The notes under the pieces were generated by a model, which saw only the letters and a program-made list of their open reading frames with translations, had not been told where the DNA came from and searched no databases. Shown here one piece after another: positions 1 through 33,021 of a stretch of DNA of 33,021 bases. Every line of letters starts with the position of its first letter. Position 1 is the stretch's first letter. This DNA comes from a virus: the IMG/VR virus record IMGVR_UViG_3300009164_000026, positions 1 to 33,021 of that record; one strand, 5' to 3'. The position numbers and the translations under genes were made by a program.

Positions 1-123
1 ATATGAGCCAGCCAGTAGCAGAAGTAGGTGGATACAAGAACATCACCGCCACAGGCGCAGTCAGCACTGGCCCTTGCCAGTTGATTGGTTTTTACGTTAA
101 CAGCACCACCGTAGGCACATTAG
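1..123. repeat. Terminal direct repeat, left copy
   Basis: These 123 bases are identical to 32899-33021. The match spans the start of the first gene and carries on through it, so the window closes on itself and the ends are redundant. The likeliest reading is a circular assembly overlap of a complete genome of 32,898 bp. A physical short terminal repeat cannot be excluded from sequence alone. Confidence 0.95.
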
Positions 124-13564: not shown

Positions 13565-15105
13565 GTTTTTTATGTGAAAGTGATGCGCCAGCAGCGCCTG
13601 TTGCTCCCGATCCGCAAGTAACCGCCGATGCACAAACTGCGGCTAACATAAAGTCGGCTTTTGCAACAGCCAAAATTAATAATCCAAACATCACTAACCC
13701 TTACGGCAAATCAACAACACAATATGGGTTAAACGCATTTTTTGCTGCTAATCCTGGGGCGGCAGAATCCTTTTTACAAAACAATCAAGGTATGTCGGCT
13801 GAAGATTATGCAAAAAGGTGGACATCTGACCGACCAGGCATGACAAATCCATACGATGAGTACACGCCGTATGTTACGCAAACGCTTAATCCTGAATCCC
13901 AAAAAATTCTTGATTCCCAACAACAAGCCAAATTGCAAATGGCAGATTTGGCAAACTTGGGCGTAAAAAACGCATCCACGTCATTGAGCACGCCTTTTGC
14001 ATTTACTGGTGCAGCAGCAAACAAATCTATTGCTGACGCTGGCGGTATTTCTCAAGGGCCAGACGCAAGTCAATTTATGGCGGGTGGTGGGCCAGACCCA
14101 AGTAAATTTATGGCGGCTGGTGGGCCTAGCGCCGCTAATTTTATGGCCGCTGGAGGGCCAAACGCATATAATTTTATGGCGGGTAACGCACCTGTTGCCC
14201 TTGATTTTCAAGCAACAAAAAACTTAAACACTTCTAATGTTGCAAAAATGCCAATTAATGCTGGCATGACAGGGCAAGAAGCAATTATGGCGCGGTTAGA
14301 GCCACAAATTCAGCGTAATCGTGTAAGCACAGAAACGCAATTAATTAACCAAGGGTTGCGGCCTGGCTCAGAAGCCTACAACAACGCGGCTACCTTATTG
14401 GGACAACAAGAAAACGATCAACGCACTCAAGCGGTTTTACAGGGTCTTGGCTTAGACTTAAGCGCCAATGCTCAAGGCTTTGGTCAAGCGGTTACTGCAG
14501 GGCAGTTTGCAAATACAGCCCAAGGTCAAAATTATGGGCAAGAATTATCGCAGCAAGCCCTTACTAACCAAGCGCGAGCACAAAACTTTGGTCAGGGTAA
14601 TACTCAACAAGCTCTGATTAATCAAGCACAAGCGCAAAACTTTGGGCAAGGTAATATTCAGCAACAGCTTTATAACCAAGCGCAGGCTCAAAATTTTGGG
14701 CAAGGTGCTACTTCACAAGGTATAACTAACCAAGCGGCTGGGCAGAACTATACGCAAAATTACAATACCATTGCCCAAAACAACGCTGCCCAACAACAGA
14801 AGTTTGCTCAAAACACACAGCAAGCAGCATTTGAAAACCAAGCACGACAACAAGCGTTGGCAGAGGCAATCCAACAACGTCAAATGCCATTGAACGAAAT
14901 TTCGGCATTGATGTCCGGTTCACAAATACAAAACCCAGTATTTCAGCCCTTTACAGGCGCAAACGTGGGGGCTGCGCCAATTGCTCAGACCATGCAAAAC
15001 GCTTATCTCGGTGCTCAAAACGCATACAATCAACAAATGGCAAGCCAAAACGCAAATACGTCAGGATTGTTTAGTTTGGCTGGCTCAGCATTGCAATTTT
15101 TATGA
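13561..15105 (+). CDS. Large Gln/Ala/Asn-rich virion protein with tandem repeats
   Basis: A 514-residue protein beginning MSFLCESDAPAAPVAPDPQ, which resembles a family of podoviral virion proteins starting with a Pro-rich segment then 'ANIKSAF..NxxNPYGKSTTQYG'. Residues 166-209 are four 11-residue repeats (GPxxxxFMAxG). Residues 320-391 are four 18-residue repeats with AQNFGQGN and a terminal NQ. The C-terminal third is a helical Gln/Asn-rich region. The segment LINQGLRPGSEAYNNA (about 263-278) is typical of the family. It lies between the nozzle and ejection-type genes, so an internal or needle-associated role is inferred. GGGGGT precedes the ATG. Confidence 0.72.
   Translation: MSFLCESDAPAAPVAPDPQVTADAQTAANIKSAFATAKINNPNITNPYGKSTTQYGLNAFFAANPGAAESFLQNNQGMSAEDYAKRWTSDRPGMTNPYDEYTPYVTQTLNPESQKILDSQQQAKLQMADLANLGVKNASTSLSTPFAFTGAAANKSIADAGGISQGPDASQFMAGGGPDPSKFMAAGGPSAANFMAAGGPNAYNFMAGNAPVALDFQATKNLNTSNVAKMPINAGMTGQEAIMARLEPQIQRNRVSTETQLINQGLRPGSEAYNNAATLLGQQENDQRTQAVLQGLGLDLSANAQGFGQAVTAGQFANTAQGQNYGQELSQQALTNQARAQNFGQGNTQQALINQAQAQNFGQGNIQQQLYNQAQAQNFGQGATSQGITNQAAGQNYTQNYNTIAQNNAAQQQKFAQNTQQAAFENQARQQALAEAIQQRQMPLNEISALMSGSQIQNPVFQPFTGANVGAAPIAQTMQNAYLGAQNAYNQQMASQNANTSGLFSLAGSALQFL
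14056..14187 (+). repeat. 33-bp coding tandem repeat, four copies
   Basis: Four contiguous 33-bp units begin at 14056, 14089, 14122 and 14155. Each opens with GGGCC and carries a TTTATGGC core, encoding 11-residue units of the form GPxxxxFMAxG. Units one and two are the most alike, units three and four are diverged. The array is in frame with the gene, so copy-number changes would keep the protein open. Confidence 0.9.
14518..14733 (+). repeat. 54-bp coding tandem repeat, four copies
   Basis: Four 54-bp units start at 14518, 14572, 14626 and 14680. Each encodes 18 residues beginning A-x-x-Q-N-(F/Y)-G-Q and ending in N-Q. The middle two units are closest. A degenerate fifth unit (AAGQNYTQNYN) follows at 14734 and a degenerate one (AQGFGQAVTAGQ) precedes. 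The period fits a helical or coiled rod in the virion. Confidence 0.9.
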
Positions 15106-15126
15106 TAATTAATCACGGGAGATTAA

Positions 15127-16743
15127 ATGGCTGACATCAATTTAGCTCCTACCAACTACGAGTTGGAGGCAATCCAAAAGCAACGCAGAATGGCTGAATT
15201 GTTGGGGCAGCAAGCCATACAACCAATAGAAATGCCGCAAGTTCCTGGCGCTCGCATTAGTCCAATTCAAGGAATTGCCAAGCTTTTGCAAGCCTACATT
15301 TCAAATAAAAATTTAAAAAAAGCAGACACAGAAGAAAAGCAATACCAATCGGATTATTTATCCGACCTTGGCTTTCTCATGCGTAATGCTGGCAAGACCA
15401 CGCCTGCGACTGCGGCAATTCCCGAGAAAATCGAAAACATTACAACGCCTATTGACGCTAACCGCAATTTGCAAGAAGTGGCTTTGCGGCAAAGTCTAAT
15501 GCGTGACCCCAATGCGGCTATTAACCCATTTGAAAGACAAATGGGCATGGATGAACGCGCACAAGTAGCTAAATTGCCTGGTCAGACTGTTGAAGAAAGA
15601 GTCACTCCCGCAGTCCCCGCTATGCCAAGTTCACCCATGTTGTCGGCTGATCTGTTAAGCGGCAATAACGCTAATGGTTACATAAAGACCGGCGCGGGAA
15701 AGATGGCATTAGCTCAGTATCTAATGCAACAACAAGCCCAACAGCAAGCGGCAGCACAAGCTGAATTGGCGGCTTCACGGCAACTTCATGCGTTCAATCC
15801 GGAACAAAACGTAGGTACATTTAGTGGCGGTCAATTTAATACCATTATTCAAGGTAAGCCTAAAGAACAAAATGTGATTGGAATTCCAAGTCCTGCAGAT
15901 TTCACGCCTGAAAGTTTGGCTACGTATGCAATTAGCAAAAATTATGCTGATTTACTTAGAAATCCTAAAGAAGTCAATGCGCCAGCGGCTGCTCAAAATT
16001 ATGAATATTATGTCAAGCAAGAAACTGATGCTGGCAGAAAACCATTGTCATTTAAAGATTTTGAACTGCTAAAAGTTCGTGAAGGAAGAGCGCAAGCCCC
16101 GCCAAGAGAGCGAATGGTTTTTGACGCAAATCGAGGCGGTACTGTTAATTTGGATACTGGTGAATTTAAACCTGTTCAACAAGGTGGTGTTGACATTGGC
16201 GTAAAACCCAAAGATTTAAAACCTGTGCCGCCAACAATTAACACTGCAATGACTCAAAATCAAGTGGTGTTAAATAAGATTGCTCGAGCAGAAGATTTAT
16301 TGACAAAAACACCCGAAGCAACTGGTATGTTTAAAGGCATGATGCCTGATGCCATTTTAAATCGTACTGATAAAGAGGGAACAGCAACAAGGGCGGCATT
16401 GGCTGAACTTGCGGCAACCAAGGTGCATGACTTAAGTGGCGCGGCTGTGTCTGTAAGTGAGTTTGGAAGATTAAAACCATTTTTGCCACAACCAACTGAT
16501 AACGCAGACACTTTACGAACAAAACTTGCTGGCATGAAAACCGAAGTTGAAGATATTGTGAATGCCACAAATCAGATTTATAGTGAAGAACAAGGCTACA
16601 AGCCAATCCCAAGTTTAGCGCCCAAGCTGGCAGCGTCAGCAGATGCGCCGCCGGTTACTGCATTAAAAGAAGGACAGACTACAACATTTGCAAACGGACA
16701 ACAATGGACATTGCAAAAAGGCAAACAAGTGAGGGTTAAATAA
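15127..16743 (+). CDS. Large virion protein, putative ejection protein
   Basis: A 538-residue protein with a GGGAGA ribosome site. The N-terminus has NYELEAIQKQRRMAELLGQQ, a helical segment common at the start of podoviral internal proteins. A Gln/Ala-rich helix follows at about 195-220. The C-terminal part (about 375-500) contains KIARAEDLL, then KVHDLSGAAVSVSEFGRLKP and a long helix (TLRTKLAGMKTEVEDIVNATN), a pattern I associate with phage ejection proteins. The very end, FANGQQWTLQKGKQVRVK, is a short beta segment. Located in the canonical place for proteins injected with the DNA. No enzymatic motif is seen. Confidence 0.7.
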   Translation: MADINLAPTNYELEAIQKQRRMAELLGQQAIQPIEMPQVPGARISPIQGIAKLLQAYISNKNLKKADTEEKQYQSDYLSDLGFLMRNAGKTTPATAAIPEKIENITTPIDANRNLQEVALRQSLMRDPNAAINPFERQMGMDERAQVAKLPGQTVEERVTPAVPAMPSSPMLSADLLSGNNANGYIKTGAGKMALAQYLMQQQAQQQAAAQAELAASRQLHAFNPEQNVGTFSGGQFNTIIQGKPKEQNVIGIPSPADFTPESLATYAISKNYADLLRNPKEVNAPAAAQNYEYYVKQETDAGRKPLSFKDFELLKVREGRAQAPPRERMVFDANRGGTVNLDTGEFKPVQQGGVDIGVKPKDLKPVPPTINTAMTQNQVVLNKIARAEDLLTKTPEATGMFKGMMPDAILNRTDKEGTATRAALAELAATKVHDLSGAAVSVSEFGRLKPFLPQPTDNADTLRTKLAGMKTEVEDIVNATNQIYSEEQGYKPIPSLAPKLAASADAPPVTALKEGQTTTFANGQQWTLQKGKQVRVK

Positions 16744-18329
16744 TGGCTGATCCTTGGGAAGTTGTGTCTGTTGCCCCTGCATCGCAATGGGATGTTGTTT
16801 CTACTGCGCCAGCCAAAAAACGGTCATGGACAGAAGTGCCAGGCGAGGCTTTAAGCAACATTCCATCAAGTGCCGCAAATTTGGCAAAAGGCTTATATCA
16901 GGCGGTTACTAATCCTGTTCAAACAGTTTCAGGTGTTTTGGATGTTGCCGCTGGCGGTTTACAAAATGCTTTGCCCAAACCTGTAGTTGATTTTGTTAAT
17001 AAATTTGATGCTGATCCCCAAGCGGCGCAACGTGCTGTTCTAGCGGCAAATGCGGCTGGTGGCATGGTAAAAGAGCGTTACGGTAGTGTAGATGCCTTAA
17101 AGAACACACTTGCCACAGATCCTGTGGGTGCAGCTGGCGATTTATCTTTATTGTTAAGTGGTGGTGCGGGTGTAGCGGCTAGAACACCGTTGTTGGCAAA
17201 AGCTGCACCTGTTCTAAAAACAGCAGCAGCTTACACCGATCCTTTAAATATGGCGGCTAAAGCTAGCGGTAAAATGTATGACCTTGCTGGCGCATTGACC
17301 AAACAAGGTTTGGGCTTTAAAACAGGCGTTGGAACAGAGCCTATTACCCAAGCCGTTCAAGCTGGTCGAGAAAGTAATCCAGCTTTTATTGAAAATTTGC
17401 GTGGTGATGTTCCTGCCATTAATGTTTTGGATGATGCCAAAGCAAATCTTACGCAAATGAATTTGAACAAGCAAAAAGATTATCGATCAGGCATGGTTGA
17501 CATCAAGAGCGACAAATCTGTGCTTGATCTTTCTAATGTTGAAGATGCTTTAAAAAATGCAGAAAACACAATTGATTTTAAGCAATCAGGTATACCTAAA
17601 GATGCCAAAGCAGTTGAAGTTTTAAAAAATATAAGAAAAAAAATAGATCAATGGAAAAAACTTGATCCTGTTGAATATCACACACCCGAGGGTCTTGACC
17701 ATTTAAAGCAAAGCCTTTGGGAAGATTTTGGAAAATTAGGCCAAGAAGAAAAAACTGCTTATTCTGTTGGCAAACAAGTATATGACTCGGTTAAAACCGA
17801 AATTGGCAAACAAGCGCCAACTTACGAAAAGGTGATGAAAGAATATACCGATGCAAGCGATTTAGCTAAGGAAATTGAACGATCATTGTCTCTTGGACAA
17901 AAAGCATCTGCTGATACTGCAATGCGTAAACTTCAGTCGCTAATGCGAAACAACGTAAACACAAATTATGGCCAACGGCTTGATTTAGCTCAACAATTGC
18001 AAGCCGCTGGCGGCAAAGACATAATGCCTGCATTGGCTGGTCAAGCTATGGGCGACTGGACACCAAGAGGCATCCAAAGAGCTACAGCAGGACTTGAGGG
18101 TATGGGCGCATATGCAATTGGTGGCCCTGCATTGGCGGCATTAGATGTAGCGGCATCATCGCCTAGATTAGTAGGAGAAGCATCATACAAATATGGTCAA
18201 CTTGCAAACGCCTTAAATCAAGGCCAACAAGCGGTTTCTAAAGCCATACCTATGACGGCAAAACAAGCTAGATTAGCGGCTCTTTTAGGGTCACAATCTA
18301 ATCCATACGCAATTGGAGAACAGCAATGA
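16743..18329 (+). CDS. Large virion protein, putative internal or ejection protein
   Basis: A 528-residue protein starting in a TAATG overlap. The first 25 residues hold two WEVVSVAPA/WDVVSTAPA repeats, a short tag also found at the N-terminus of phage ejection-type proteins. Next come Gly/Ala-rich amphipathic helices (about 35-180) that could insert in or cross membranes. The central region (about 225-400) is a charged helical domain including HTPEGLDHLKQSLWEDFGKL, and the C-terminus is again Ala-rich. The segment from about 17240 to 17900 is noticeably A/T-rich. The order after the 538-residue protein and before the fibre fits a DNA-ejection protein; no muramidase motif is visible. Confidence 0.7.
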   Translation: MADPWEVVSVAPASQWDVVSTAPAKKRSWTEVPGEALSNIPSSAANLAKGLYQAVTNPVQTVSGVLDVAAGGLQNALPKPVVDFVNKFDADPQAAQRAVLAANAAGGMVKERYGSVDALKNTLATDPVGAAGDLSLLLSGGAGVAARTPLLAKAAPVLKTAAAYTDPLNMAAKASGKMYDLAGALTKQGLGFKTGVGTEPITQAVQAGRESNPAFIENLRGDVPAINVLDDAKANLTQMNLNKQKDYRSGMVDIKSDKSVLDLSNVEDALKNAENTIDFKQSGIPKDAKAVEVLKNIRKKIDQWKKLDPVEYHTPEGLDHLKQSLWEDFGKLGQEEKTAYSVGKQVYDSVKTEIGKQAPTYEKVMKEYTDASDLAKEIERSLSLGQKASADTAMRKLQSLMRNNVNTNYGQRLDLAQQLQAAGGKDIMPALAGQAMGDWTPRGIQRATAGLEGMGAYAIGGPALAALDVAASSPRLVGEASYKYGQLANALNQGQQAVSKAIPMTAKQARLAALLGSQSNPYAIGEQQ

Positions 18330-19399
18330 GTTACAACGGTTCCGGCACATTTCAAATTAACTCCACGGGTCAGCCTGTTGTTGGTGGCACGATCATCAGT
18401 TCGTCTACCTTTAACGCACTAACGGCAGACTTAGCTACAGGTTTAACCACAGCCATAACAAAGGATGGTCAAACCGCTACAACGGCGCGAATACTCTTTG
18501 CCCAAGGGATTAACTCCACGCTGGTCACAGACGCATCTAGTGTGTCTACAGGTTCAATTTTTACGGCGGGTGGCGTAGGCATTGCCAAAAAACTTTATGT
18601 TGGCACAGACGCTAACATAGCGGGTAGTGCGGCGGTTACTGGGAATTTAACGGTTACTGGAACTTTGGGCGTTACTGGGGTGGCTACATTTAGCGCTACG
18701 CCAATTTATTCAAGTTTGACGGCTTCTAGTGCTGTAGCGACTGATGCGTCCAAAGCGCTAGTAAGTGTGGCAAACACTGGCACAGGCTCAAACGTATTAG
18801 CAACAGGCCCGACAATTGCCTCGTTAAATTTGACAACAGCTTTAACGCTTGCAAGCGCTGCTGGCACAAATGGTCAAGTGCTTACAAGTGCTGGATCGGG
18901 TTTGCCTACTTGGTCAACGCCAGCGTCTGCTGGGTTTACTATTGGAACTCCAACAGACTTATCACTAGGCACGTTGACTGCGGTTAACTACACTAGCATC
19001 CCAAGTTCAGCAAGACAAATAATAATTTCTTTTTCAGGGGTAGGCACAGACACCTCCCCAATACTTGTGCAACTTGGTGATGCTGGAGGCATTGAAAATA
19101 CTGGTTACATATCGGGGTCGTTCCGCACTACTAACGCAAGTGGTGTTACAGCTACCGATGGATTTGTCATTAGTTTTGCTATTACTTCCAATGCTTTTTT
19201 TGGTCATATGATATTAACATTAGAAAACAATACAACTAATAGTTGGGTTAGCTCACATTCTGGGCGAATTGCCAGTTCTGCTTCAGCCATTGGTGGCGGC
19301 AATAAATCATTATCTCAAACACTTGACCGACTGCGTATTACTACTGTAAATGGTACGGATTTATTTGATGCCGGTGAAGTTAACATTGCTTACATATAA
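18326..19399 (+). CDS. Tail fibre / receptor-binding protein
   Basis: A 357-residue fibre-like protein. The N-terminal third (INSTGQPVVGGTIISSSTFN, then DGQTATTARILFAQGIN) is a common phage fibre attachment module. It is followed by a beta-repeat shaft (VTGNLTVTGTLGVTGVATFS) and ASKALVSVANTGTGSNVLAT, a segment frequent in fibres. The linker GTNGQVLTSAGSGLPTW (180-196) leads to a C-terminal domain of about 160 residues (from FTIGTPTDLSLGTLTAVNYT) that probably contacts the receptor. The next gene is a tail-assembly chaperone-like protein, as usual for fibres. GGAGAA precedes the ATG. Confidence 0.82.
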   Translation: MSYNGSGTFQINSTGQPVVGGTIISSSTFNALTADLATGLTTAITKDGQTATTARILFAQGINSTLVTDASSVSTGSIFTAGGVGIAKKLYVGTDANIAGSAAVTGNLTVTGTLGVTGVATFSATPIYSSLTASSAVATDASKALVSVANTGTGSNVLATGPTIASLNLTTALTLASAAGTNGQVLTSAGSGLPTWSTPASAGFTIGTPTDLSLGTLTAVNYTSIPSSARQIIISFSGVGTDTSPILVQLGDAGGIENTGYISGSFRTTNASGVTATDGFVISFAITSNAFFGHMILTLENNTTNSWVSSHSGRIASSASAIGGGNKSLSQTLDRLRITTVNGTDLFDAGEVNIAYI

Positions 19400-21647: not shown

Positions 21648-21714
21648 CAAAAAGGATTAACGTCCCAATTCCAATAATTGCGCCAATGGCTAAAGCAAAG
21701 ACGGTGGCAATCAT
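21517..21714 (-). CDS. Small membrane protein, last gene of the leftward operon
   Basis: A 65-residue protein whose first 29 residues are an almost unbroken membrane segment (MIATVFALAIGAIIGIGTLI, then LFAMLLAHV), followed by a Pro/Ser/Glu-rich soluble tail. A longer frame exists upstream to 21783, but ATG 21714 has GAGGAAA upstream and overlaps the stop of the previous leftward gene (ATGA), so I choose it. Its last 131 bases lie antisense to the endolysin gene. The role is unknown; it could affect the membrane or host entry by other phages. Confidence 0.7.
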   Translation of the reverse strand: MIATVFALAIGAIIGIGTLILFAMLLAHVQSEDNPPSWRNSLPNDSLGEELPNKPLEAQESPYPK

Positions 21715-22340
21715 GTCTTTTCCTCTATTGTGTAAAACCAATCGTCCCCCGCTGACCATTTGCGTGTGCCATCCACCGACCATAGATGCTGCGCTGCTTG
21801 GAAATCGGGAAACTTGGTTTGTGCAGGCACAAGGCTTTGGTCATACCACAAACAGCGATTGTTGGGCTGGCAAGCAAATTGACCATTTTCTAATTTGATC
21901 CAATTAAAGCTCTTATGCTCCTCAGCGGTTTCCGTAAAGCCAGTGTCTAAATCCATCCCATCGGCACAAAAGTCAACGGTAAACAGGTATGTGCCAAAGT
22001 GCCATTGCTTATCTTTTCCAAGAAACTTAACACCAAGGTTACGCAAGCCAATCTTTTCAACAATAGAAAACCGATACCCCATGCAATCCCACAATTGCAA
22101 AGTGTCTATGGGCAGGTCACTAGCGCCCTCTTTCCACACATAGGCATGGATTGGTAGTTTGTCGTACAAAGCGCCGTAATCGGTTAATAGCGACTCAATC
22201 CGAAACACTTGCCCTCTAAGGGCTTTAAGGCTAACCCACACGCAAGGCACAAGCTCGCCATGCCCCTTGGTGTGGTTGTACAAGAATTCAGCTTTTACAA
22301 AGCATTTGATAGGCGGTAATGATGAAACAAGGTAACTCAA
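21711..22340 (-). CDS. Conserved phage protein, 209 residues
   Basis: A mixed alpha/beta protein rich in aromatic residues. The start is probably TTG 22340, which overlaps the upstream stop as TTGA and has GGGAG nine bases before it; it reads (M)SYLVSSLPPIKCFVKAEFLY. An ATG at 22373 would overlap the previous gene by 37 bases. Features include NHTKGHGELVPCVWVSLKAL (about 22-41) and LDTLQLWDCMGYRFS-like strands. I recall this layout in unannotated proteobacterial phage genes but know no function. It lies downstream of recombination genes in the leftward operon. Confidence 0.72.
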   Translation of the reverse strand: MSYLVSSLPPIKCFVKAEFLYNHTKGHGELVPCVWVSLKALRGQVFRIESLLTDYGALYDKLPIHAYVWKEGASDLPIDTLQLWDCMGYRFSIVEKIGLRNLGVKFLGKDKQWHFGTYLFTVDFCADGMDLDTGFTETAEEHKSFNWIKLENGQFACQPNNRCLWYDQSLVPAQTKFPDFQAAQHLWSVDGTRKWSAGDDWFYTIEEKT

Positions 22341-22639
22341 ATTAACTCCCGTTGTACTGGCACAAATTGCCATTCACGCTCTGCCCTGCCTGAGTTGGAC
22401 TTGGTGGTGCGTCCTGTAAGCTCCACACGCCCATCTTTCTCAAGCTCTTTCATGCGCCTTGCCACCTGGTTGCCATCAAGCCCCACAAGCTCGGCTATGC
22501 CATCCTTGCCCATTGGCCCAAAGCGGCGCAAACACTCCACAATCTTTTCAAAATGCTGCTTGGCAAGGTCTATGGATTGATCCGCTGCGGCGTGGCTGGT
22601 AAAGGGGTCAAGCCCTCTTGCTCTAAAAAGGGATGTCAT
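22337..22639 (-). CDS. Winged-helix DNA-binding protein
   Basis: A 100-residue protein from ATG 22639. It begins MTSLFRARGLDPFTSHAAAD, a common opening of small phage helix-turn-helix proteins ('DPxTSHxAA'). Residues about 44-83 form a winged helix: ECLRRFGPMGKDGIAELVG then GNQVARRMKELEKDGRVELT. The wing is followed by a basic stretch (GRTTKSNSGR). It probably binds DNA, perhaps as a regulator of this operon. The start overlaps the previous gene by 17 bases and the end overlaps the next start by four. Confidence 0.75.
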   Translation of the reverse strand: MTSLFRARGLDPFTSHAAADQSIDLAKQHFEKIVECLRRFGPMGKDGIAELVGLDGNQVARRMKELEKDGRVELTGRTTKSNSGRAEREWQFVPVQRELI

Positions 22640-25269: not shown

Positions 25270-26010
25270 ATGTTATTGATACCCAAAAATTGGGCTGTAT
25301 TTCAGCACTATAAAAATCGTCTGCCGCCGTGGATAAAGTTGCACCGTGAACTCCTAAACGATAGGGTTTACATGAGCTTGCCACTTGCTAGCAAGGCGAT
25401 AGCACCATTGATGTGGTTGCTAGCATCCGAATCAAAAAATGGTAGTTTTGATGGCTCATTAGATGAGCTTGTGTTTAGGTTGCACATTACAGAAAAAGAT
25501 TACCGAGATGGTGTTAAACCATTAATTGATAAAGGATTCTTTATTGATGCTAGCAAGACGCTAGCAAACAGCAAGCAAGTTGCTACCTCAGAGAGAGAGG
25601 CAGAGAGAGAGGCAGAGACAGAGAAAACCTATATATGTCCACCTAACGGTGAACTTGATCCAGTACCGATTAAAAAATTACCCGAATGCGATCACAAAAA
25701 TGTAATTAAGCTATACCACCAAAACTTGCCCACAATGCGTAGGGTAGAGGTTTGGAACGAAACCCGAGCCGGTTATTTGCGACAAAGATGGCGTGAGGTA
25801 GCTGCGGAACTTGCCCAAGAAAAAGCCATCGAATCGGGTGATGTGCTTAACTGGTGGGCTGAGTTTTTTCAATCCGTTGGCAAATCAAGATTTTTGACCG
25901 GTAGGGTCAATGGCAAAGATGGTCGGGCTTTTGTTGCCGACTTAGAGTGGCTAATAAAACCAAGCAATTTTGCAAAAATCGTAGAGGGAAAATATCATGG
26001 CAATCACTAA
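25270..26010 (+). CDS. Replication initiator / helicase-loader protein (O-like)
   Basis: A 246-residue protein. The N-terminal 110 residues form a winged-helix domain that opens LLIPKNWAVFQHYKNRLPPW and continues with LPLASKAIAPLMWLLASESK, a pattern of phage replication proteins. A Glu/Arg-rich linker (SEREAEREAETEK, 107-119) is encoded by a purine repeat. The C-terminal domain includes NVIKLYHQNLPTMRRVEVWN and ends SNFAKIVEGKYH, the end typical of proteins that load the host helicase. It is located after a Cro-like gene, as lambda O is. GAGGT precedes the ATG. Direct helicase-loader activity is inferred. Confidence 0.8.
   Translation: MLLIPKNWAVFQHYKNRLPPWIKLHRELLNDRVYMSLPLASKAIAPLMWLLASESKNGSFDGSLDELVFRLHITEKDYRDGVKPLIDKGFFIDASKTLANSKQVATSEREAEREAETEKTYICPPNGELDPVPIKKLPECDHKNVIKLYHQNLPTMRRVEVWNETRAGYLRQRWREVAAELAQEKAIESGDVLNWWAEFFQSVGKSRFLTGRVNGKDGRAFVADLEWLIKPSNFAKIVEGKYHGNH
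25384..25625. other. Candidate replication origin inside the initiator gene
   Basis: GCTAGC occurs four times in about 180 bases, at 25388-25393 (inside the perfect palindrome CTTGCTAGCAAG), 25419-25424, 25549-25554 and 25560-25565, and only about once elsewhere in the window. Three copies sit in TGCTAGCA. They fall in two different reading phases, so codon use does not explain them. A purine-only-biased tract with two AGAGAGAGAGGC copies (25590-25613) follows, then CCTATATATG. The order iterons, purine-biased tract, AT-rich bases matches lambda ori within the O gene. Coordinates of the GCTAGC cores may be off by one base. Confidence 0.5.
25590..25625 (+). repeat. Purine-rich short tandem repeat
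   Basis: AGAGAGAGAGGC occurs twice in tandem (25590-25601 and 25602-25613), followed by a degenerate AGAGACAGAG. It encodes the Glu/Arg/Ala linker of the initiator protein. The strand is nearly free of pyrimidines, which favours DNA slippage and easy strand opening. Confidence 0.85.
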
Positions 26011-26230
26011 GTTCACCCAACATAAAGACGATGCGTTTGATGACATTCAGCGCCTCATGTGCTCTGTGCATAATTGCCCAAACCGTTGGTCGGTACATAT
26101 GGAGGGCGAAAAACCGAAGTGTTCTAAGCACCAATGGGAAAAACAAGATTACAAAGCGCCTGACTTAAAAGAAGTTTTTAAGAATTCAAGCCCTGTTAAG
26201 CATTGGCAAGATGATGGGGAGGTGTTTTGA
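25997..26230 (+). CDS. Small zinc-binding-like phage protein
   Basis: A 77-residue protein. The segment MCSVHNCPNRWSVHMEGEKP then KCSKHQWEK contains Cys22, Cys27, Cys42 and His45 as likely zinc ligands, a pattern seen in small proteins downstream of phage replication genes. The C-terminus is acidic (WQDDGEVF). AGAGGG precedes the ATG and the start overlaps the initiator gene by 14 bases. No specific role is known; a replication accessory is plausible. Confidence 0.75.
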   Translation: MAITKFTQHKDDAFDDIQRLMCSVHNCPNRWSVHMEGEKPKCSKHQWEKQDYKAPDLKEVFKNSSPVKHWQDDGEVF

Positions 26231-27612
26231 GATATTTAAGCGTTTGTTCAGGTATAGAAGCCGCCACAGTCGCCTGGCATCCTCTTAATTGGAAAGCAGT
26301 TGCGTATTCGGAAATTGAAAAATTTCCATCTGAAGTATTAGCGCACCATTACCCAAACACGCCCAATGTTGGCGACATGACCAAATTTAAGGAGTGGAAT
26401 CTTGGAACAAATGTCGATCTTCTTGTTGGAGGAACACCCTGCCAATCATTCTCAGTCGCAGGACTCAGAAAAGGATTGGATGACCCTCGTGGCAACCTCA
26501 TGCTTACCTATCTTGCCATTGCTAAACAACATCGCCCCAACTGGTTGGTCTGGGAGAACGTCCCCGGCGTTTTGTCCTCCAATGGAGGACGGGACTTTGG
26601 TAGCTTCCTTGGAGGGTTGGCAGAATGCGGGTATGGGTTCGCATACAGGGTGCTTGACGCTCAGTTCTTTGGAGTGGCACAGCGCCGCCGCCGTGTGTTC
26701 GTTGTCGGATACCTTGGAGACTGGCGAGCTGCCGCAGCGGTTCTTTTTGAGCGTCACAGCCTGCAAAGGCATCCTGCGCCGAGCAGAGAAAAGAGGCAAG
26801 GTGTTGCCGCCAGCGCTGGAGCAAGCCCTGCAAGCCGTAGCGCAATAACAGCTCGCATGGTTGCATTTGGCGAATACTCTGATGACGGCACAGCGTCAGC
26901 AATGAAAGCAAGGGATTACAAGGACGCAACTGATTTGGTGGCGCAACCCATTGTTCTAGATCGGGCAGCATTTAATCAAGGTGAAAACGCTCAATACAAA
27001 TTCAGAGCAGAACATAGCGAAACTATGGATTCATTGGTGGCGAGAGGTCCTCATGCTGTATTGCAGCCAATCCCAATCCACGACCAAGCTACACGCCATG
27101 CTGGAAAGAATGGCGAGAAGACTATGGGTAAAGGCAATGGCCTTGGCGTTGGTCATCCTGGTGAGCCAATGAACACTTTGACAAAAGGTGATCGTCATGC
27201 GGTGGCGCAACCCATTGGAGTTGACACTTACAACGGCACAGAAACTGGTCAGGTGTCATGCACTATAACTGCTGATGTTGGCGGTCCAACGCATAGCGGT
27301 CCAAAGGTTATGCAACCTATCGGCACAGACCTGTACAACTGCTCAATTACAGGCGATGTGGCTGTGCCTTTAACTAATAGAGCTGATGGCACAGGCACTG
27401 GTCCAACAGTTATGCAAGCAATGGCCGTCAGAAGACTCACCCCAGTGGAATGCGAGCGTTTACAAGGATTTCCTGACAACTACACCGATATTAAAAGAAA
27501 AAACAAACCTACGCCTGATGGTCCAAGATACAAAGCCTTGGGCAACAGTATGGCTGTGCCTGTTATGGCGTGGATTGGTGCAAGAATTCAACAATATGAG
27601 GATTTGCAATGA
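26227..27612 (+). CDS. dcm: DNA (cytosine-5) methyltransferase
   Basis: A 461-residue C5-cytosine methyltransferase. Motif I is LSVCSGIEAATVAW (4-17), motif IV GGTPCQSF (68-75, catalytic Cys72), motif VI WENVPG (109-114), motif VIII QRRRRVFVVG (152-161), motif IX RLTPVECERLQGFPDNY (403-419) and motif X KALGNSMAVPV (436-446). Residues about 200-400, the target-recognition region, are built of four modules each starting (A/L/M)QPI. It starts at TTG in a TTGA overlap, with a strong GGGGAGG site. It probably protects phage DNA from host restriction. An alternative-frame ORF overlaps 26411-26848. Gene symbol is generic for the family. Confidence 0.93.
   Translation: MRYLSVCSGIEAATVAWHPLNWKAVAYSEIEKFPSEVLAHHYPNTPNVGDMTKFKEWNLGTNVDLLVGGTPCQSFSVAGLRKGLDDPRGNLMLTYLAIAKQHRPNWLVWENVPGVLSSNGGRDFGSFLGGLAECGYGFAYRVLDAQFFGVAQRRRRVFVVGYLGDWRAAAAVLFERHSLQRHPAPSREKRQGVAASAGASPASRSAITARMVAFGEYSDDGTASAMKARDYKDATDLVAQPIVLDRAAFNQGENAQYKFRAEHSETMDSLVARGPHAVLQPIPIHDQATRHAGKNGEKTMGKGNGLGVGHPGEPMNTLTKGDRHAVAQPIGVDTYNGTETGQVSCTITADVGGPTHSGPKVMQPIGTDLYNCSITGDVAVPLTNRADGTGTGPTVMQAMAVRRLTPVECERLQGFPDNYTDIKRKNKPTPDGPRYKALGNSMAVPVMAWIGARIQQYEDLQ
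26411..26848 (+). CDS. Possible overlapping gene inside the methyltransferase (+1 frame)
   Basis: A 145-residue frame in the +1 phase of the methyltransferase gene, from ATG 26411. The C-terminal 50 residues (from 26696) look like a real, widespread phage protein segment: CSLSDTLETGELPQRFFLS, then CKGILRRAEKRGKVLPPALE and QALQAVA. I recall this ending in separate phage proteins annotated next to or overlapping cytosine methyltransferases. The first half is Ser/Pro-rich and has less protein character. The methyltransferase frame over the same bases encodes motif VIII and the start of the recognition region. Translation is unproven; no clear ribosome site is seen. Confidence 0.45.
   Translation: MSIFLLEEHPANHSQSQDSEKDWMTLVATSCLPILPLLNNIAPTGWSGRTSPAFCPPMEDGTLVASLEGWQNAGMGSHTGCLTLSSLEWHSAAAVCSLSDTLETGELPQRFFLSVTACKGILRRAEKRGKVLPPALEQALQAVAQ
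26941..27411 (+). repeat. Degenerate modular repeat in the methyltransferase recognition region
   Basis: The protein residues 239-395 can be cut at AQPI (239), LQPI (279), AQPI (327), MQPI (362) and a last MQAM (396). Each module ends in a short block such as GPHAV, GDRHAV, GPKV or GPTV and is 34 to 48 residues long. They are diverged at the DNA level. This looks like repeated recognition or insertion modules between motifs VIII and IX. Confidence 0.6.
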
Positions 27613-27891
27613 ATGATCGATGCCAAGCTAACCAACTCCTTGACCAACATAAAGAAACACATCAACTTAGCTACGCTGACACCACAAGAGCGCTTAGACT
27701 TACAGGAGACTATGAGGGTGATGGAAGCGCAAGAATGGGTGAAGAGATACCGCAAGAAAGCGAAAGACCTTGGGAAAATCAAAGCATCAATATGGTGGTC
27801 ACAGGTCTGCTCAAACATCGAAAGACGGCGTGGATCAGCCGCCGCCGCTGACCTTAGAAAGCGAATGAATGAGACACGCCAAAAGAGTTGA
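27613..27891 (+). CDS. Conserved helical phage protein
   Basis: A 92-residue, mostly helical protein: LTPQERLDLQETMRVMEAQE, WVKRYRKKAKDLGKIKAS, then WWSQVCSNIERRRG. It starts at ATG 27613, one base after the methyltransferase stop; GAGG lies about ten bases upstream. The other frame starting at 27609 has an ATGA overlap but reads like noise. Basic helices with two Trp suggest nucleic-acid binding; function unknown. Confidence 0.68.
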   Translation: MIDAKLTNSLTNIKKHINLATLTPQERLDLQETMRVMEAQEWVKRYRKKAKDLGKIKASIWWSQVCSNIERRRGSAAAADLRKRMNETRQKS

Positions 27892-28643: not shown

Positions 28644-28935
28644 CTGCCAAGCCTGTGGATCAGGCAATATGGTGCAGGCAGCGCACACAAACTGGGGTGG
28701 CGGTAAAGGTCGAGGGGTTAAGGCTGACGACAACTTGGTAGCGGCTTTGTGCCTTAAATGCCATTATGAGATTGATCAAGGCAAAGAGTTAAGCAAAGAA
28801 GAACGGCAAGAAATGTGGCAACAAGCGCATATGGCAACGGTAAAAAAACTTTACATCCAAGGCGCTTGGCCTGTTGACGTACCCATTCCTACGTTTACAA
28901 TAGATGTGCAGTTGACACCTTTGCAGGGGCTTTGA
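28582..28935 (+). CDS. HNH/YbcO-like (DUF1364-like) nuclease
   Basis: A 117-residue protein starting at TTG 28582, with GGAGAC upstream. NCQACGS (about 21-27) gives the first CxxC, QAAHTN (32-37) the HNH-type His, and ALCLKCHYEIDQG the second CxxC with the C-terminal His. GVKADDNLVAALC matches the YbcO/DUF1364 arrangement. This family includes putative nucleases of lambdoid prophages. The first 62 bases overlap the zinc-ribbon gene. Its TGA stop lies inside the loop of the terminator that follows. Confidence 0.8.
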   Translation: MFQKHQYIRSKKLLKLVAGLNCQACGSGNMVQAAHTNWGGGKGRGVKADDNLVAALCLKCHYEIDQGKELSKEERQEMWQQAHMATVKKLYIQGAWPVDVPIPTFTIDVQLTPLQGL

Positions 28936-28949
28936 CCCCTGCTTTTTTT
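28923..28949 (+). terminator. Rho-independent terminator ending the rightward early operon
   Basis: GCAGGGG at 28923-28929 pairs with CCCCTGC at 28936-28942 around a six-base loop, followed by seven T at 28943-28949. It overlaps the end of the HNH-like gene, whose stop codon is in the loop. It separates the early rightward genes from those ahead of the packaging operon. Confidence 0.92.
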
Positions 28950-28958
28950 AGGGTAAAT

Positions 28959-29315
28959 ATGAAAAAAGACGTTGCCGACTTTATTTCCACGCTGTTTCAC
29001 AGCTCGACCGTGACTCATTTCATGCACTTGGCGACTGATTCTTACGCTGTGCATAAAGCTTTGGGTAAATATTACCCCGAGATTGTTGAGCTGGCTGATA
29101 GCTACGCTGAAACTTACATGGGGGCTTACGAAAAGATTAAGGATTTTCCTGAGAATTTCCATAACGCCAAAGACCCTGTCAAGTATTTGACTAGCATCAA
29201 AGATTACGTCTACAAAAACCGCAAGGCTTTGCCTAACGACACAGAGCTGCAAAACATTGTGGATGAGATTGCTGCGCTGATTGATTCAACCCTGTACAGG
29301 CTAACTTTGCAATGA
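28959..29315 (+). CDS. Ferritin/Dps-like helical protein (DUF5856-like)
   Basis: A 118-residue all-helical protein. The N-terminal helices TVTHFMHLATDSYAVHKALG and KYYPEIVELADSYAETYMG resemble the first Dps/ferritin helix pair, with spaced His and Glu residues (H in FMHL, H in AVHK, E in PEIVE), and match a phage family I recall as DUF5856. The C-terminal half is two more helices. AGGG precedes the ATG, right after the terminator. Whether it binds iron or DNA is not shown. It is the first gene before the GT8-like gene. Confidence 0.72.
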   Translation: MKKDVADFISTLFHSSTVTHFMHLATDSYAVHKALGKYYPEIVELADSYAETYMGAYEKIKDFPENFHNAKDPVKYLTSIKDYVYKNRKALPNDTELQNIVDEIAALIDSTLYRLTLQ

Positions 29316-29992
29316 TCAGGATATTTGCTGGCTATGACCCAAGGGAGGCTGTTGGCTACCATGTGTTTTGCCAAAGCCTGATTGAGCGCACCAGCGAGCC
29401 AGTAGCCATTACACCGTTATTTGGTACACAGCGGGACGGTACTAACGCATTTACTTACCAACGCTTTCTAGTACCCTACTTTACAAACTTTACAGGTAGG
29501 GCAATATTCTTGGATGCCAGCGATATGTTGATGTTGGCAAACATAGACAACTTGAGCAAGCTATTTGACCCGACCAAGGCGGTGCAAGTTGTTAAGCATG
29601 AGTATCAAACTAAACACCCAAAGAAATACATTGGCACACCAATGGAGTCGGCGAATCGGGACTATCCCCGAAAGAATTGGTCAAGTTTAATACTTTGGAA
29701 TTGCGATCACCTAAGAAACAAGGTACTAACACCCGAATTTGTGGATGACCACACGGGTGCAGAGCTTCACCGATTCGGTTGGTTGCCCGATTCACTTATC
29801 GGTGACTTACCGAAAGAGTGGAATGTGCTAGTTGGCGAGCAAGAGAACAAGAACGCTAAGATTGCCCACTACACGCTAGGCATCCCCGAGTTTGACCATT
29901 ACCAAAACTGCGACTTTAGTAAGCAATGGTTTAACACCAAAAGCCGTATGATGAATGGCTTAATCAAAATGCGGGAGCTAGTAGATGGCTGA
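29312..29992 (+). CDS. Glycosyltransferase, GT8-like
   Basis: A 226-residue protein of the GT-A type. IRIFAGYDPREAVGYHVFCQ (2-21) is the nucleotide-sugar start. FLDASDML (66-73, D68 and D71) is the DxD-type metal site. NWSSLILWNC, LHRFGWLPDSLIGDLPKEWN and the late HYTLGIPEFDHY complete the pattern of the phage GT8-like family. It transfers a sugar to an unknown acceptor, perhaps DNA or surface glycans. Start overlaps the previous stop (ATGA). It may work with the DUF115 and GT-B proteins at 6821-9617. Confidence 0.85.
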   Translation: MIRIFAGYDPREAVGYHVFCQSLIERTSEPVAITPLFGTQRDGTNAFTYQRFLVPYFTNFTGRAIFLDASDMLMLANIDNLSKLFDPTKAVQVVKHEYQTKHPKKYIGTPMESANRDYPRKNWSSLILWNCDHLRNKVLTPEFVDDHTGAELHRFGWLPDSLIGDLPKEWNVLVGEQENKNAKIAHYTLGIPEFDHYQNCDFSKQWFNTKSRMMNGLIKMRELVDG

Positions 29993-31286
29993 TTACCGAG
30001 ACTTAGCTGCGGCACTTGGTGGGTATGGACAAGATACCAGCGGCATTACGCCTGACACTTTGATAACTTTAAAAAACGGCAAAAAAGCCAGCGCAACTGA
30101 TTTGCTTGGGATGCTTAAAGCCATTGGCTCGGGATCGTTAAGCAACCTTGAATCATTGGTAAGGGGTGGCGTGGCACAAATACCTGGCACGGCTGGCGAC
30201 CTAGAGGGTTTAGCTCGAATGGGTATAAACAAGTCATTTGGTGCGGGTGGGGTAAACGTAAGCCAAACCCCTGTATTGCCGACTACTACAGACATTTTGG
30301 GCATGATGCCAAGGGTAACGGCAACTAGACCCGAAACATCAGGCATGGAAGAGCTTGGCGGGTACATGGCTCCAGCTTTTGGCAAGGTGGCTAAACCAGC
30401 GGTGACAGGGTATGCAAAGTTAGCGGGGCAAGAGATTAATGCCGCCATGACAGGCCAGCCTACACGGTCATTGTTGGGCGAAATTACGCCTAAACCATTG
30501 CAGCTTGATGTTTATCACGGCACACCGCACACATTGCCGCCGACTGAGCGCAACCCATTAGGTGAGTTTGACGCATCTAAGATTGGAACTGGTGAGGGGG
30601 CGCAAGAGTATGGGTATGGAATATATACCGCTGAAGCGCCAGCGGTTGCAAGAGCTTATCAAAATACGTTATCAAAATATGGCGAATTGAGATTTGCTGA
30701 TGGAACTGTAAAAAATGTTCAAGATTTACCTTATGGTTCACCTGAACAAATTGCTGGTCAAATTTGGATTAACAAACCTAATTTAGCGGATGCAAAATTT
30801 GCATTATCTAATTTAGATTCTAAATATCTTGGCGCATCAAAAGATGATGTTCTTAAACAACTTGAAAGTTTAGATGTTGGTAAAGCAAAACTTTCAGGTA
30901 ATTTTTACAAAGTTGATCTCCCTGACGAGAAGATTGCAACCATGCTTGATTGGGATAAGCCAATGGCAGAGCAACGAAACTTAATCGAAAAAATGCGTAA
31001 AGCACTTGTTGGTGGTGATTCTCCTTTGTCGCCTGTCAAACAGTTTGAACTAAATGATTTTCTAAACGACAAAGTTCGTATGAGGAATTTGTCACCTCAA
31101 TCAATCATTAATTTGAAAGACCCAAAAATAGTTAAAAAATTGCAACAAGCAGGAATACCAGGCATCAAGTATTTTGATGAGGGTTCAAGGACTACTGGGC
31201 AAGGAACTCGCAATTTTGTAGTGTTTCCTGGCGAAGAAAAGAATATGACCATTCTTGAGCGTAATGCAGAAAAGAGTGCCAAATGA
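29985..31286 (+). CDS. ADP-ribosyltransferase-like virion-associated protein (ART-PolyVal type)
   Basis: A 433-residue protein. Residues 1-165 are Gly/Ala/Leu-rich helical (about 46-135 carry SLESLVRGGVAQIPGTAGDL-like segments) and resemble leading parts of injected phage proteins. Residues 175-225 carry the ADP-ribosyltransferase signature: DVYHGTPH (175-182), then KIGTGEGAQEYGYGIYTAE (199-217), and the C-terminal AGIPGIKYFDEGSR ... GQGTRNFVVF block is also characteristic of the ART domain of phage polyvalent proteins. From about 30650 to 31180 the gene is markedly A/T-rich. It lies directly before the terminase genes. It may modify a host target after injection; activity and target are not shown. 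Confidence 0.8.
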   Translation: MADYRDLAAALGGYGQDTSGITPDTLITLKNGKKASATDLLGMLKAIGSGSLSNLESLVRGGVAQIPGTAGDLEGLARMGINKSFGAGGVNVSQTPVLPTTTDILGMMPRVTATRPETSGMEELGGYMAPAFGKVAKPAVTGYAKLAGQEINAAMTGQPTRSLLGEITPKPLQLDVYHGTPHTLPPTERNPLGEFDASKIGTGEGAQEYGYGIYTAEAPAVARAYQNTLSKYGELRFADGTVKNVQDLPYGSPEQIAGQIWINKPNLADAKFALSNLDSKYLGASKDDVLKQLESLDVGKAKLSGNFYKVDLPDEKIATMLDWDKPMAEQRNLIEKMRKALVGGDSPLSPVKQFELNDFLNDKVRMRNLSPQSIINLKDPKIVKKLQQAGIPGIKYFDEGSRTTGQGTRNFVVFPGEEKNMTILERNAEKSAK

Positions 31287-31603
31287 CTATACAAACAACT
31301 AAAGTAGTCACTAGTAGAAAGAAAGCAGGGGGAAGAGCTGCGGGTGTGCCTAACAAGACCACACAACAGGCAAGGGAGGCCATTGCTTTGTTTGTTGATG
31401 GTAACGCACATAGATTGGCAGAGTGGCTTGATGAGGTTGCTATGGGCGTTCCCGAGCATGACATAAAACCTAACCCTGCAAAAGCCTTTGAGCTATTTCA
31501 AAGCGTGGTTGAGTACCATGTACCCAAATTGGCAAGGACTGAGATCACTGGCAAGGATGAGGGGCCGGTAGAAATGGTGGTGACATGGGGCGGCGTGAAG
31601 TAA
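31283..31603 (+). CDS. Putative small terminase subunit
   Basis: A 106-residue basic protein. SRKKAGGRAAGVPNKTTQQA (about 11-30) followed by helices (AREAIALFVDGNAHRLAEWL, NPAKAFELFQSVVEYHVPKL) is the standard form of small proteins before podoviral large terminases. It would recognise packaging sites in phage DNA. Start in an ATGA overlap, and it overlaps the terminase start by 19 bases. Confidence 0.82.
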   Translation: MTIQTTKVVTSRKKAGGRAAGVPNKTTQQAREAIALFVDGNAHRLAEWLDEVAMGVPEHDIKPNPAKAFELFQSVVEYHVPKLARTEITGKDEGPVEMVVTWGGVK

Positions 31604-32904
31604 TCTTGCCCTATAGCCCAAGGGCGGCATTCATGCCATTCCATAACAGGATTGAGCGTTGGTCTTGTTTGGTAGCCCACCGCAGGGCGGGAAAGACCGT
31701 AGCGGCAATCAACGACCTAATCAAGCGAGCAATCACCGAAGGCAATAGATCAGCCCAATACGCTTACATTGCACCATTCCGCAGCCAAGCTAAACGAGTG
31801 GCGTGGGATTATCTCAAGCATTACGCTGCACCGGTGACCAAAGCCACAAACGAATCCGATTTGTCGGTGGAGCTGGTGAACGGCGCAAAGATTATGTTGT
31901 TTGGATCGGACAATGCGGATGCCATGCGGGGCATGGGATTTAACGGCGTTTACCTTGATGAATACGGCGACTTCAAGCCTAGCGTGTGGGGAAATGTGGT
32001 GAGACCTACTTTGTCTAGCACTATGGGGTGGGCGGTGTTTGGGGGTACGCCTAAGGGCAAAAACCAATTTCACGACATCTACAAGGTTAGCCAGGTAGTG
32101 CCGGATTGGTTTCTGTTAAGACTTCCCGCCTCGGTGTCTAACCTATTGCCTGACTCAGAATTGCAGGCGGCTAAGTCACAGTTAAGCCAAGATCAATACG
32201 ACCAAGAATATGAATGCAGCTTTGATGCGGCTATCCTTGGGGCGTTTTATGGGCAAGAGATGCGATTGGCGCAAGATGAGGGCAGGATTAGAGAGTTACC
32301 CTTTGAGCCTGAGTCACCTGTTTACACCGCATGGGACTTAGGTTATAGGGATGACACCGCCATTTGGTGGTATCAAGTGGTTAGGGGCGAGGTCAGGGTA
32401 ATGGACTATTACGCCGTGTCGGGGGCAAGCATTGAGGAAATAGCCAATGTGGTTAATGCTCGGGGTTACCGATACACCCGCCATTACTTACCGCATGACG
32501 CAAGAGCAAAGACGCTGGCTTCCGGCGGCAAATCAATTGTTGAGCAGTTGGCTGCACACCTTGGCGGCATAGCGAAGTTAGCCATCGTGCCTGAGATTGG
32601 CATCCAAGACGGCATCCAAGCGGTTAGGATGATCTTGCCAAACTGTTATTTTGACTATCGGTGCGATGAGGGGCTAGAAGCGTTAAGGCAATATCAGCGG
32701 GAATATGATGAAGATAAGAAAACTTTTCGTCAAACTCCTCGCCACGATTGGTGCTCACACCCCGCAGATGCGTTTAGAATGCTTGCAGTAGCCTATAGAC
32801 AAGAGGCAAAAGACGAGACACCGCCCAAGGGCAAGACCCTGCAAACCATCACACTTGATGAGCTGTGGGACTACGAGATACAACATAAAGAGGAGCGCAT
32901 ATGA
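31585..32904 (+). CDS. terL: Terminase large subunit
   Basis: A 439-residue DNA-packaging motor. The ATPase Walker A is AHRRAGKT (31-38), Walker B is GVYLDE (121-126) and the coupling motif region is FGGTPKGKN (152-160). The RNase H-like nuclease domain has AWDLGYRDDT (249-258, D251), LPHDARAKT (302-310, D305) and HPADAFRM (392-399, D395). It translocates DNA into the procapsid and cuts it. Start ATG 31585 is inside the small-subunit gene. Stop overlaps the next ATG. The C-terminus after about 410 is charged and flexible. Confidence 0.95.
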   Translation: MGRREVILPYSPRAAFMPFHNRIERWSCLVAHRRAGKTVAAINDLIKRAITEGNRSAQYAYIAPFRSQAKRVAWDYLKHYAAPVTKATNESDLSVELVNGAKIMLFGSDNADAMRGMGFNGVYLDEYGDFKPSVWGNVVRPTLSSTMGWAVFGGTPKGKNQFHDIYKVSQVVPDWFLLRLPASVSNLLPDSELQAAKSQLSQDQYDQEYECSFDAAILGAFYGQEMRLAQDEGRIRELPFEPESPVYTAWDLGYRDDTAIWWYQVVRGEVRVMDYYAVSGASIEEIANVVNARGYRYTRHYLPHDARAKTLASGGKSIVEQLAAHLGGIAKLAIVPEIGIQDGIQAVRMILPNCYFDYRCDEGLEALRQYQREYDEDKKTFRQTPRHDWCSHPADAFRMLAVAYRQEAKDETPPKGKTLQTITLDELWDYEIQHKEERI

Positions 32905-33021
32905 GCCAGCCAGTAGCAGAAGTAGGTGGATACAAGAACATCACCGCCACAGGCGCAGTCAGCACTGGCCCTTGCCAGTTGATTGGTTTTTACGTTAACA
33001 GCACCACCGTAGGCACATTAG
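32899..33021. repeat. Terminal direct repeat, right copy
   Basis: This is an exact copy of bases 1-123. It carries the ribosome site and start of the gene that continues at the left end, so the ends join with no missing or extra bases. Confidence 0.95.
32901..33021 (+). CDS. Start of the small post-terminase protein, duplicated by the end overlap
   Basis: The first 40 codons of the gene at 3-281, cut by the window end. The ATG overlaps the terminase TGA and GAGGAG is correctly placed upstream, which shows how this gene is expressed in the circular genome. It is not an independent gene. Confidence 0.9.
   Translation, partial: MSQPVAEVGGYKNITATGAVSTGPCQLIGFYVNSTTVGTL

What the first reader, a model, noticed from the sequence alone, without database searches (positions are those of the whole stretch)
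29985..31286. ADP-ribosyltransferase-like effector encoded ahead of terminase
The protein has a clear ART core (YHGTPH plus KIGTGEGAQEYGYGIY) behind an N-terminal helical region like that of injected phage proteins. The middle part is A/T-rich compared with its neighbours, which suggests recent gain of the domain. Placement at the head of the packaging operon makes a virion-carried, host-modifying enzyme likely, as with T4 Alt, but by a different protein family.
Basis: partly seen in the sequence, partly recalled or inferred. Interest (0 to 1): 0.7.

Follow-up and report, generated by a model that had tools for sequence, protein, structure and literature searches.

The report
Phage effector with swappable ART tail
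The gene just ahead of this freshwater phage's DNA-packaging genes encodes an ADP-ribosyltransferase-fold enzyme joined to a constant leader, and in near-identical sister phages the same leader carries a dozen unrelated tails instead, which marks the site as a cassette for exchanging what are probably injected host-attack proteins.

Summary
ORF 29985-31286 (433 aa) ends in a real ART domain (residues ~174-426). 35 of 74 relatives individually match Pfam ART-PolyVal. AlphaFold gives a confident model (pLDDT 88.8). Foldseek matches phage ART-PolyVal models strongly, but solved toxin ARTs only weakly. H178 and Y214 are invariant. The canonical third acidic residue is not where expected: N410 is invariant there and the 'HYD' aspartate column is mostly Pro, so catalysis is likely but unproven.

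The first ~172 residues are a constant leader, found only in one uncultured freshwater podophage group. It is followed at a fixed junction (window ~30500) by at least 13 mutually unrelated C-terminal domains, of which this ART is one. Flanking genes stay 83-98% identical. Phages 99.4% identical in flanking proteins carry different tails. All tails are AT-rich, so low GC is a property of the cassette, not a sign of recent gain. No tail type has an immunity gene.

Best reading: a non-MuF 'leader plus exchangeable effector' of the polyvalent-protein kind, probably packaged and injected. Virion carriage is inferred from context only. The leader is predicted to be mostly disordered, not helical.

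The parts
29985..31286 (+). Whole gene: constant leader plus ART effector domain, 433 aa
   Evidence: full-length relatives L003, L004, L005, L006, L009, L012 (46-60% identity)
29985..30500 (+). Constant leader module (residues 1-172); 60-95% identical in about 50 loci carrying at least 13 different C-terminal types; predicted mostly disordered, one helix at residues 133-156
30465..30497 (+). Junction peptide RSLLG-x-ITPKP (residues 161-171), after which the tail is exchanged; a second junction used by other types lies near codon 131-142 (about 30376-30410)
   Evidence: DNA homology to other-type sister phages stops at 30496-30500 (L016, L017, L022, L079) or 30376-30391 (L092, L041)
30504..31262 (+). 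ART-fold domain (residues 174-426), ART-PolyVal-related
30513..30530 (+). Strand 1 motif YHGTPH with invariant H178
   Evidence: 74 of 74 sequences
30579..30635 (+). KIGTGEGAQ...GYGIYTAE with strand 2 Tyr Y214 (invariant)
30906..30962 (+). Strand 3 region YKVDLPDEKIATMLDWDKP
   Evidence: one of the few DNA stretches conserved between ART alleles (30897-30961)
31152..31178 (+). Strand 4 GIPGIKYFD (residues 390-398; D398 in 71 of 74)
31209..31238 (+). Strand 5 RNFVVF then PGEE (residues 409-418): N410 invariant where the third catalytic acid is expected; E417 and E418 mostly acidic just after
31283..31603 (+). Small-terminase-like gene; DNA homology to sister phages of other tail types resumes at 31297-31349, so it bounds the cassette
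31585..32904 (+). Large terminase (PF03237 / PF17289; phrog_2)
29312..29992 (+). Conserved glycosyltransferase-like gene bounding the locus upstream (PF01501 weak; phrog_28018), 83-92% identical across 8 near-complete relatives

Best explanation
The gene encodes a two-part phage effector. A constant leader of about 172 residues, unfolded on its own, is followed by an exchangeable C-terminal enzyme, which in this genome is an ART domain of the ART-PolyVal (Tox-ART-HYD2-related) kind. It is most likely made with the packaging genes, carried in the virion by the leader and delivered with the DNA, where the ART transfers ADP-ribose from NAD+ to a host (or defence) macromolecule early in infection. 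Sister phages swap the C-terminal cassette by recombination at a fixed junction while keeping the leader and flanks, as they do with tail-fibre tips. Shown here: ART homology and predicted fold, the constant leader, at least 13 tail types, the junctions, recurrent exchange, AT-rich cassettes and terminase adjacency. Inferred: packaging, injection, enzymatic activity and target.
For: ART: Pfam ART-PolyVal in 35 of 74 relatives, DUF3990 in 8, PARP in 1. Model pLDDT 88.8, pTM 0.79, matching viral ART-PolyVal models (E down to 2.6e-18); most of the best PDB hits are DT/ExoA/cholix-group ART domains, though weak (E 0.35 and up). H and Y invariant. Cassette: N-terminal-only and C-terminal-only relatives; 13 real C-terminal clusters without mutual BLAST similarity; all at the same place between the GT gene and TerS-TerL. 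Sharp junctions at 30500 and 31297. GT+TerL tree needs 18 changes for 13 types (12 is the minimum; shuffled labels average 21.9), and pairs 97-99.4% identical in flanking proteins differ in tail. Leader GC 0.51-0.56 against tail GC 0.33-0.46 in every real type. Context: terminase or portal homologue within 3 kb in 44 of 78 other distinct ART loci, and terminase (L021, L127, L147) or portal (L150) genes directly downstream in further ones. In phage phiGT1 the ART homologue lies between portal and scaffold genes; in vir555 it is part of a 5.9-kb ORF near internal virion and tail protein genes. Published argument that phage ARTs in such contexts are head-packaged: PMC5512222, PMC9503650.
Against: No virion proteomics or activity for any member could be read. 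The leader has no detectable relative among 50,697 annotated phage records or in the genome collection scan and no known targeting signal was identified. The third catalytic acid is not at the canonical position: N410 is invariant there, and the HYD aspartate column is Pro in 67 of 74. No solved structure is matched with significance. Position beside terminase could also reflect a recombination hot spot rather than co-packaging.
Confidence: 0.6

Rival explanations
1. An ART effector made in the infected cell and not packaged (like T4 ModA/ModB, or an anti-defence or superinfection-exclusion protein); the leader directs it within the cell, for example to membrane or DNA, and terminase adjacency is incidental.
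For: No virion data; leader predicted disordered with one 24-residue helix; variable cassettes are also typical of anti-defence loci (general knowledge).
Against: The gene overlaps the terminase genes in one apparent transcription unit and ART relatives in other phages lie beside terminase, portal or internal virion genes, a context associated with late expression.
Confidence: 0.25
2. ART-fold domain without transferase activity: it binds NAD+ or another nucleotide, or does different chemistry, because the third catalytic residue is lost.
For: N410 invariant at the expected acid position and P415 in 67 of 74 where polyvalent ARTs were reported to have Asp (PMC5512222).
Against: H178 and Y214 invariant and core motifs under strong constraint in 74 diverse sequences; E417 and E418 lie just after in a slightly longer loop; ARTs with non-Glu third residues can be active (general knowledge of mono-ARTs).
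Confidence: 0.13
3. A polymorphic toxin in the strict sense (like MuF toxins), used against competitor bacteria and paired with an immunity gene.
For: Constant N-terminus with many alternative C-terminal domains and AT-rich tips.
Against: No room for an immunity gene in the window (4-nt overlap with TerS) and at most about 0.24 kb between tail and TerS in other types; no MuF match; no integrase was seen among the genes scanned.
Confidence: 0.04
4. The tail variety is a product of mis-assembled metagenomic contigs.
For: Relatives are metagenomic contigs, and L020 (an ART ORF running into TerL) looks like a deletion or chimera.
Against: The same junction and types recur in independent samples (types 1, 2 and 3 in at least four distinct contigs each, all ORFs intact); L017, 97% identical to the window in GT+TerL, carries another complete tail.
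Confidence: 0.03

Closest known systems
ART-PolyVal (Pfam PF18760), ADP-ribosyltransferase domains of phage polyvalent proteins (Iyer et al. 2017, PMC5512222)
   Same: Homologous ART domain; strand-1 His and strand-2 Tyr; genomic context beside packaging and head genes; AlphaFold models of ART-PolyVal-like phage proteins are the best structural matches.
   Different: Window protein itself is below Pfam detection; strand-5 Asp not conserved (N410, then P-G-E-E); single effector domain with a short leader instead of a long multidomain protein.
MuF polymorphic toxins of temperate phages (PMC5576092)
   Same: Constant N-terminal part with many alternative C-terminal effector domains in a phage structural-gene context.
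   Different: Leader is not MuF, no immunity gene downstream, cassette sits between a glycosyltransferase-like gene and TerS.
T4 Alt (virion-carried, injected ART)
   Same: Phage ART proposed to be carried in the virion and act early.
   Different: Alt belongs to the R-S-E clade near baseplate genes (PMC5512222); this one is H-Y type and beside terminase. Virion carriage is shown for Alt, only inferred here.
DarA/DdrB-type polyvalent and ParB-like injected proteins of phage P1
   Same: Two alternative tails at this site carry ParB/sulfiredoxin-like motifs (L039 E 0.0078, L046 E 0.19 to ParB PHROGs; weak); L036 matches phrog_2579 'ParB C-terminal domain' (E 1e-37).
   Different: Different leader; no metallopeptidase domain; no virion data.

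Membership tests
ART superfamily / ART-PolyVal (PF18760) | Sequence match to the family profile | tested here: inconclusive
   Window protein: none at E 0.1. 35 of 74 relatives match individually, best 9.6e-8; L064 22.5 bits against a cut-off of 31.2. Membership by transitive homology.
ART superfamily / ART-PolyVal (PF18760) | ART fold | tested here: met
   pLDDT 88.8 model; strong match to viral ART-PolyVal-like models; best PDB hits are DT-group ARTs but only E 0.35 and up.
ART superfamily / ART-PolyVal (PF18760) | Strand-1 His and strand-2 Tyr | tested here: met
   H178 and Y214 in 74 of 74.
ART superfamily / ART-PolyVal (PF18760) | Third catalytic acid on strand 5 (Asp in the HYD2 clade, Glu in DT/PARP) | tested here: not met
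   N410 invariant, P415 in 67 of 74; acids only further on at E417/E418. Assigned by sequence pattern, not by superposition.
ART superfamily / ART-PolyVal (PF18760) | NAD+-dependent transfer | not testable with these tools
   Needs a biochemical assay.
Polyvalent proteins | Two to fifteen enzymatic or LPD domains in one protein | tested here: not met
   One recognisable domain behind a disordered leader. Some relatives of the ART are in long proteins (L150, L160).
Polyvalent proteins | Carried in the virion and injected | not testable with these tools
   Context only.
MuF polymorphic toxins | MuF N-terminal domain | tested here: not met
   No Pfam or PHROG match to the leader.
MuF polymorphic toxins | Variable C-terminal effector domains on a constant N-terminus | tested here: met
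   At least 13 types.
MuF polymorphic toxins | Adjacent immunity gene | tested here: not met
   4-nt overlap or up to about 0.24 kb to TerS in all types examined.
T4 Alt family | R-S-E active site | tested here: not met
   His/Tyr pattern instead.

The most novel reading that the evidence does not exclude
The leader defines a new, non-MuF class of phage 'leader plus exchangeable effector' system in an uncultured podophage group: a short, unfolded signal that loads whatever enzyme is attached to it into the virion for injection, with the tails exchanged by recombination at a fixed junction in response to host or defence variation.
Probability: 0.45. Interest if true: 0.72.

Novelty: new variant of a known kind. 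Interest (0 to 1): 0.55.

Why it matters
Phage-carried ARTs and polyvalent effectors are known mainly from scattered comparisons. Here one phage group holds genome backbone, leader and site constant while the effector changes, a natural series in which effector choice, not background, differs between near-identical phages. It offers at least 13 alternative tails (one clear ART, another with a weak ART match, two with ParB-like motifs, most unnamed) as a catalogue of candidate host-takeover or anti-defence enzymes. If the leader is a loading signal, it would be a compact tag for delivering proteins by phage particles.

Tried and rejected
Single-sequence Pfam, PHROG and PDB searches of the window protein found nothing; the ART call rests on relatives and the model. 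The PDB profile search gave only a chance helix match (gp41 constructs). Own-genome PF18760 search was empty and its controls were silent, so uninformative. The genome-contig scan with the leader found no relative, and no annotated phage has the leader, so the host is unknown. Leader class A2 compared with another leader class A5 (hhalign 96.7%) is driven partly by the shared junction end, so not claimed as homology over the whole leader; A2 against A6 is negative. 'Recent gain from low GC' rejected. An isolate relative, phiGT1, has published virion mass spectrometry (PMC10386132), but the figure and supplement could not be read, so whether its ART homologue QLB38217.1 was detected is unknown. 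Type 14 (L059) is a frameshifted leader, not a tail type; type 4 is joined by a shared second half and may hold two or three architectures.

Full report
Check of the observation. The ORF is at the stated coordinates (29985..31286, +, ATG, 433 aa), overlapping the upstream glycosyltransferase-like gene and the downstream small-terminase-like gene by a few bases. The window is a complete genome: its first and last 123 bases are identical. Genes present include terminase, portal, major head protein, tail protein, amidase, holin, RecE-like exonuclease, Erf and a replication protein. TerL is closest (41-42% identity) to those of Microcystis phage Mvi-Yong1342-1 and Rhodoferax phage P26218, then to Pelagibacter podophages.

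The ART domain is real. On its own the protein matches no Pfam, PHROG or PDB entry. Two scans of viral contigs with the protein and its ART region returned a broad family. In a 74-sequence alignment (A4), residues 174-426 show the motifs Y-H178-G-[TS]-P-H, KIGTGEGAQ..G.G[IL]Y214.AE, LYKVDLPDE..MLDWDKP, GIPGIKYLD and [RS]NFVVF; 17 columns are invariant at 27% mean identity. 35 of 74 members match PF18760 ART-PolyVal singly, 8 match DUF3990 and one PARP. AlphaFold2 on A4 gave mean pLDDT 88.8, pTM 0.79. Foldseek finds ART-PolyVal-like phage models at E down to 2.6e-18. Against the PDB the best hits are mostly diphtheria/exotoxin A/cholix-group ART domains, but at E 0.35 and above, so they agree without being significant.

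Catalytic residues. His and Tyr are invariant. At the position of the third residue (judged by the strand pattern, not by superposition) there is an invariant Asn (N410). The Asp that Iyer et al. report on strand 5 of polyvalent-protein ARTs (H-Y-D, PMC5512222) is Pro in 67 of 74; acidic residues E417/E418 follow in a loop two residues longer. Transferase activity is therefore likely but not shown.

The leader and its alternative tails. Many relatives matched only residues 1-~186 or only ~165-430. Extracting the ORFs shows a constant leader (77% mean column identity in a 21-sequence set) followed by C-terminal parts that fall into 13 clusters with no mutual BLAST similarity at the cut-off, plus one frameshifted copy. 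In nearly every case the gene lies between the same glycosyltransferase-like gene and TerS-TerL. Against sister phages of other tail types the DNA homology stops at 30496-30500 (or 30376-30391 for a second junction) and resumes at 31297-31349. Even among ART-tailed sisters the interior of the ART is unalignable DNA, with only the motif-bearing ends and strand 3 conserved. Across eight near-complete relatives the flanking GT and TerL are 83-92% identical, while the tail has no match in six and 38-49% in two. Only the tail-fibre region, the replication region and some small genes vary as much.

Exchange is recurrent. On a GT+TerL protein tree of 33 phages, the 13 types need 18 changes (minimum 12; 200 label shuffles average 21.9, lowest 18). 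The closest discordant pair (L029, L035) is 99.4% identical in the flanking proteins; the window's own nearest relative L017 (97%) has a different, 631-aa tail. Every real tail type is AT-richer (GC 0.33-0.46) than its leader (0.51-0.56) and the following genes (0.48-0.54), so low GC is a standing property of the cassettes and cannot date this one.

What the other tails are. Most have no name. Type 4 (L091) has a weak ART-PolyVal match, and L036, grouped with it, matches phrog_2579 'ParB C-terminal domain'. L039 and L046 have ParB-like motifs with weak PHROG support. Type 1 matches phrog_7348 (a 2564-position family labelled endolysin) over about 180 residues, and type 13 an unnamed PHROG. L015, with a different leader, has an ART followed by a second ART-PolyVal-like domain. 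No type has room for more than about 0.24 kb before TerS, so there is no immunity gene.

How it most likely works. The leader is predicted mostly disordered with one helix (pLDDT 30-55), which fits a targeting or packaging segment rather than an enzyme. The gene sits in the packaging operon; 44 of 78 other distinct ART loci have a terminase or portal homologue within 3 kb, further ones have terminase or portal genes detected only by profile, and in isolate phages the ART homologue lies among head or internal virion genes. Published surveys interpret that context as head packaging and injection (PMC5512222, PMC9503650). I therefore commit to: made late, loaded into the virion by the leader, delivered with DNA, modifies a host or defence target with ADP-ribose. 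Fold, homology, leader constancy, exchange and context are shown; packaging, injection, activity and target are inferred.

Comparison. It works like a MuF polymorphic toxin or a small polyvalent protein but fails defining features of both (no MuF, no immunity gene, one domain). It is homologous to ART-PolyVal domains but departs at the third catalytic position. It is not a T4 Alt-family protein.

Noticed in passing
window 1-123 and 32899-33021: 123-bp identical ends: the window is a complete, circularly assembled genome of about 32.9 kb.
   Followed up: yes
window 13561-19399: Tail-fibre-like region is as variable between relatives as the effector tail (mean identical fraction 0.09-0.30), the expected receptor-driven hot spot.
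   Followed up: partly
window 25270-27851: Replication protein and DNA-methyltransferase-like genes are absent or unrelated in most of eight close relatives: a third exchanged module.
   Followed up: partly
L020:215-1270: ORF in which the leader and the first part of the ART run straight into the C-terminal part of the large terminase (TerS and most of TerL missing): a deletion or an assembly chimera.
   Followed up: no
window 6821-8452: 543-aa protein with an MptE-like (PF01973) domain, E 2.3e-15, between head and tail genes.
   Followed up: no
window 21711-22373 (minus strand): Ferredoxin-family gene (phrog_3704, E 1.8e-74), present in only some relatives.
   Followed up: no
window 28932-29315: DUF5856 gene (phrog_858) keeps its place near the effector gene, also in phages with only about 40-55% identity and other leaders.
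   Followed up: no
L015:3662-5530, L018, L019: A phage group with TerL only 42-43% identical has a different leader but an ART whose second half is nearly identical to the window's, followed by a second ART-PolyVal-like domain: effector parts move between phage groups.
   Followed up: partly
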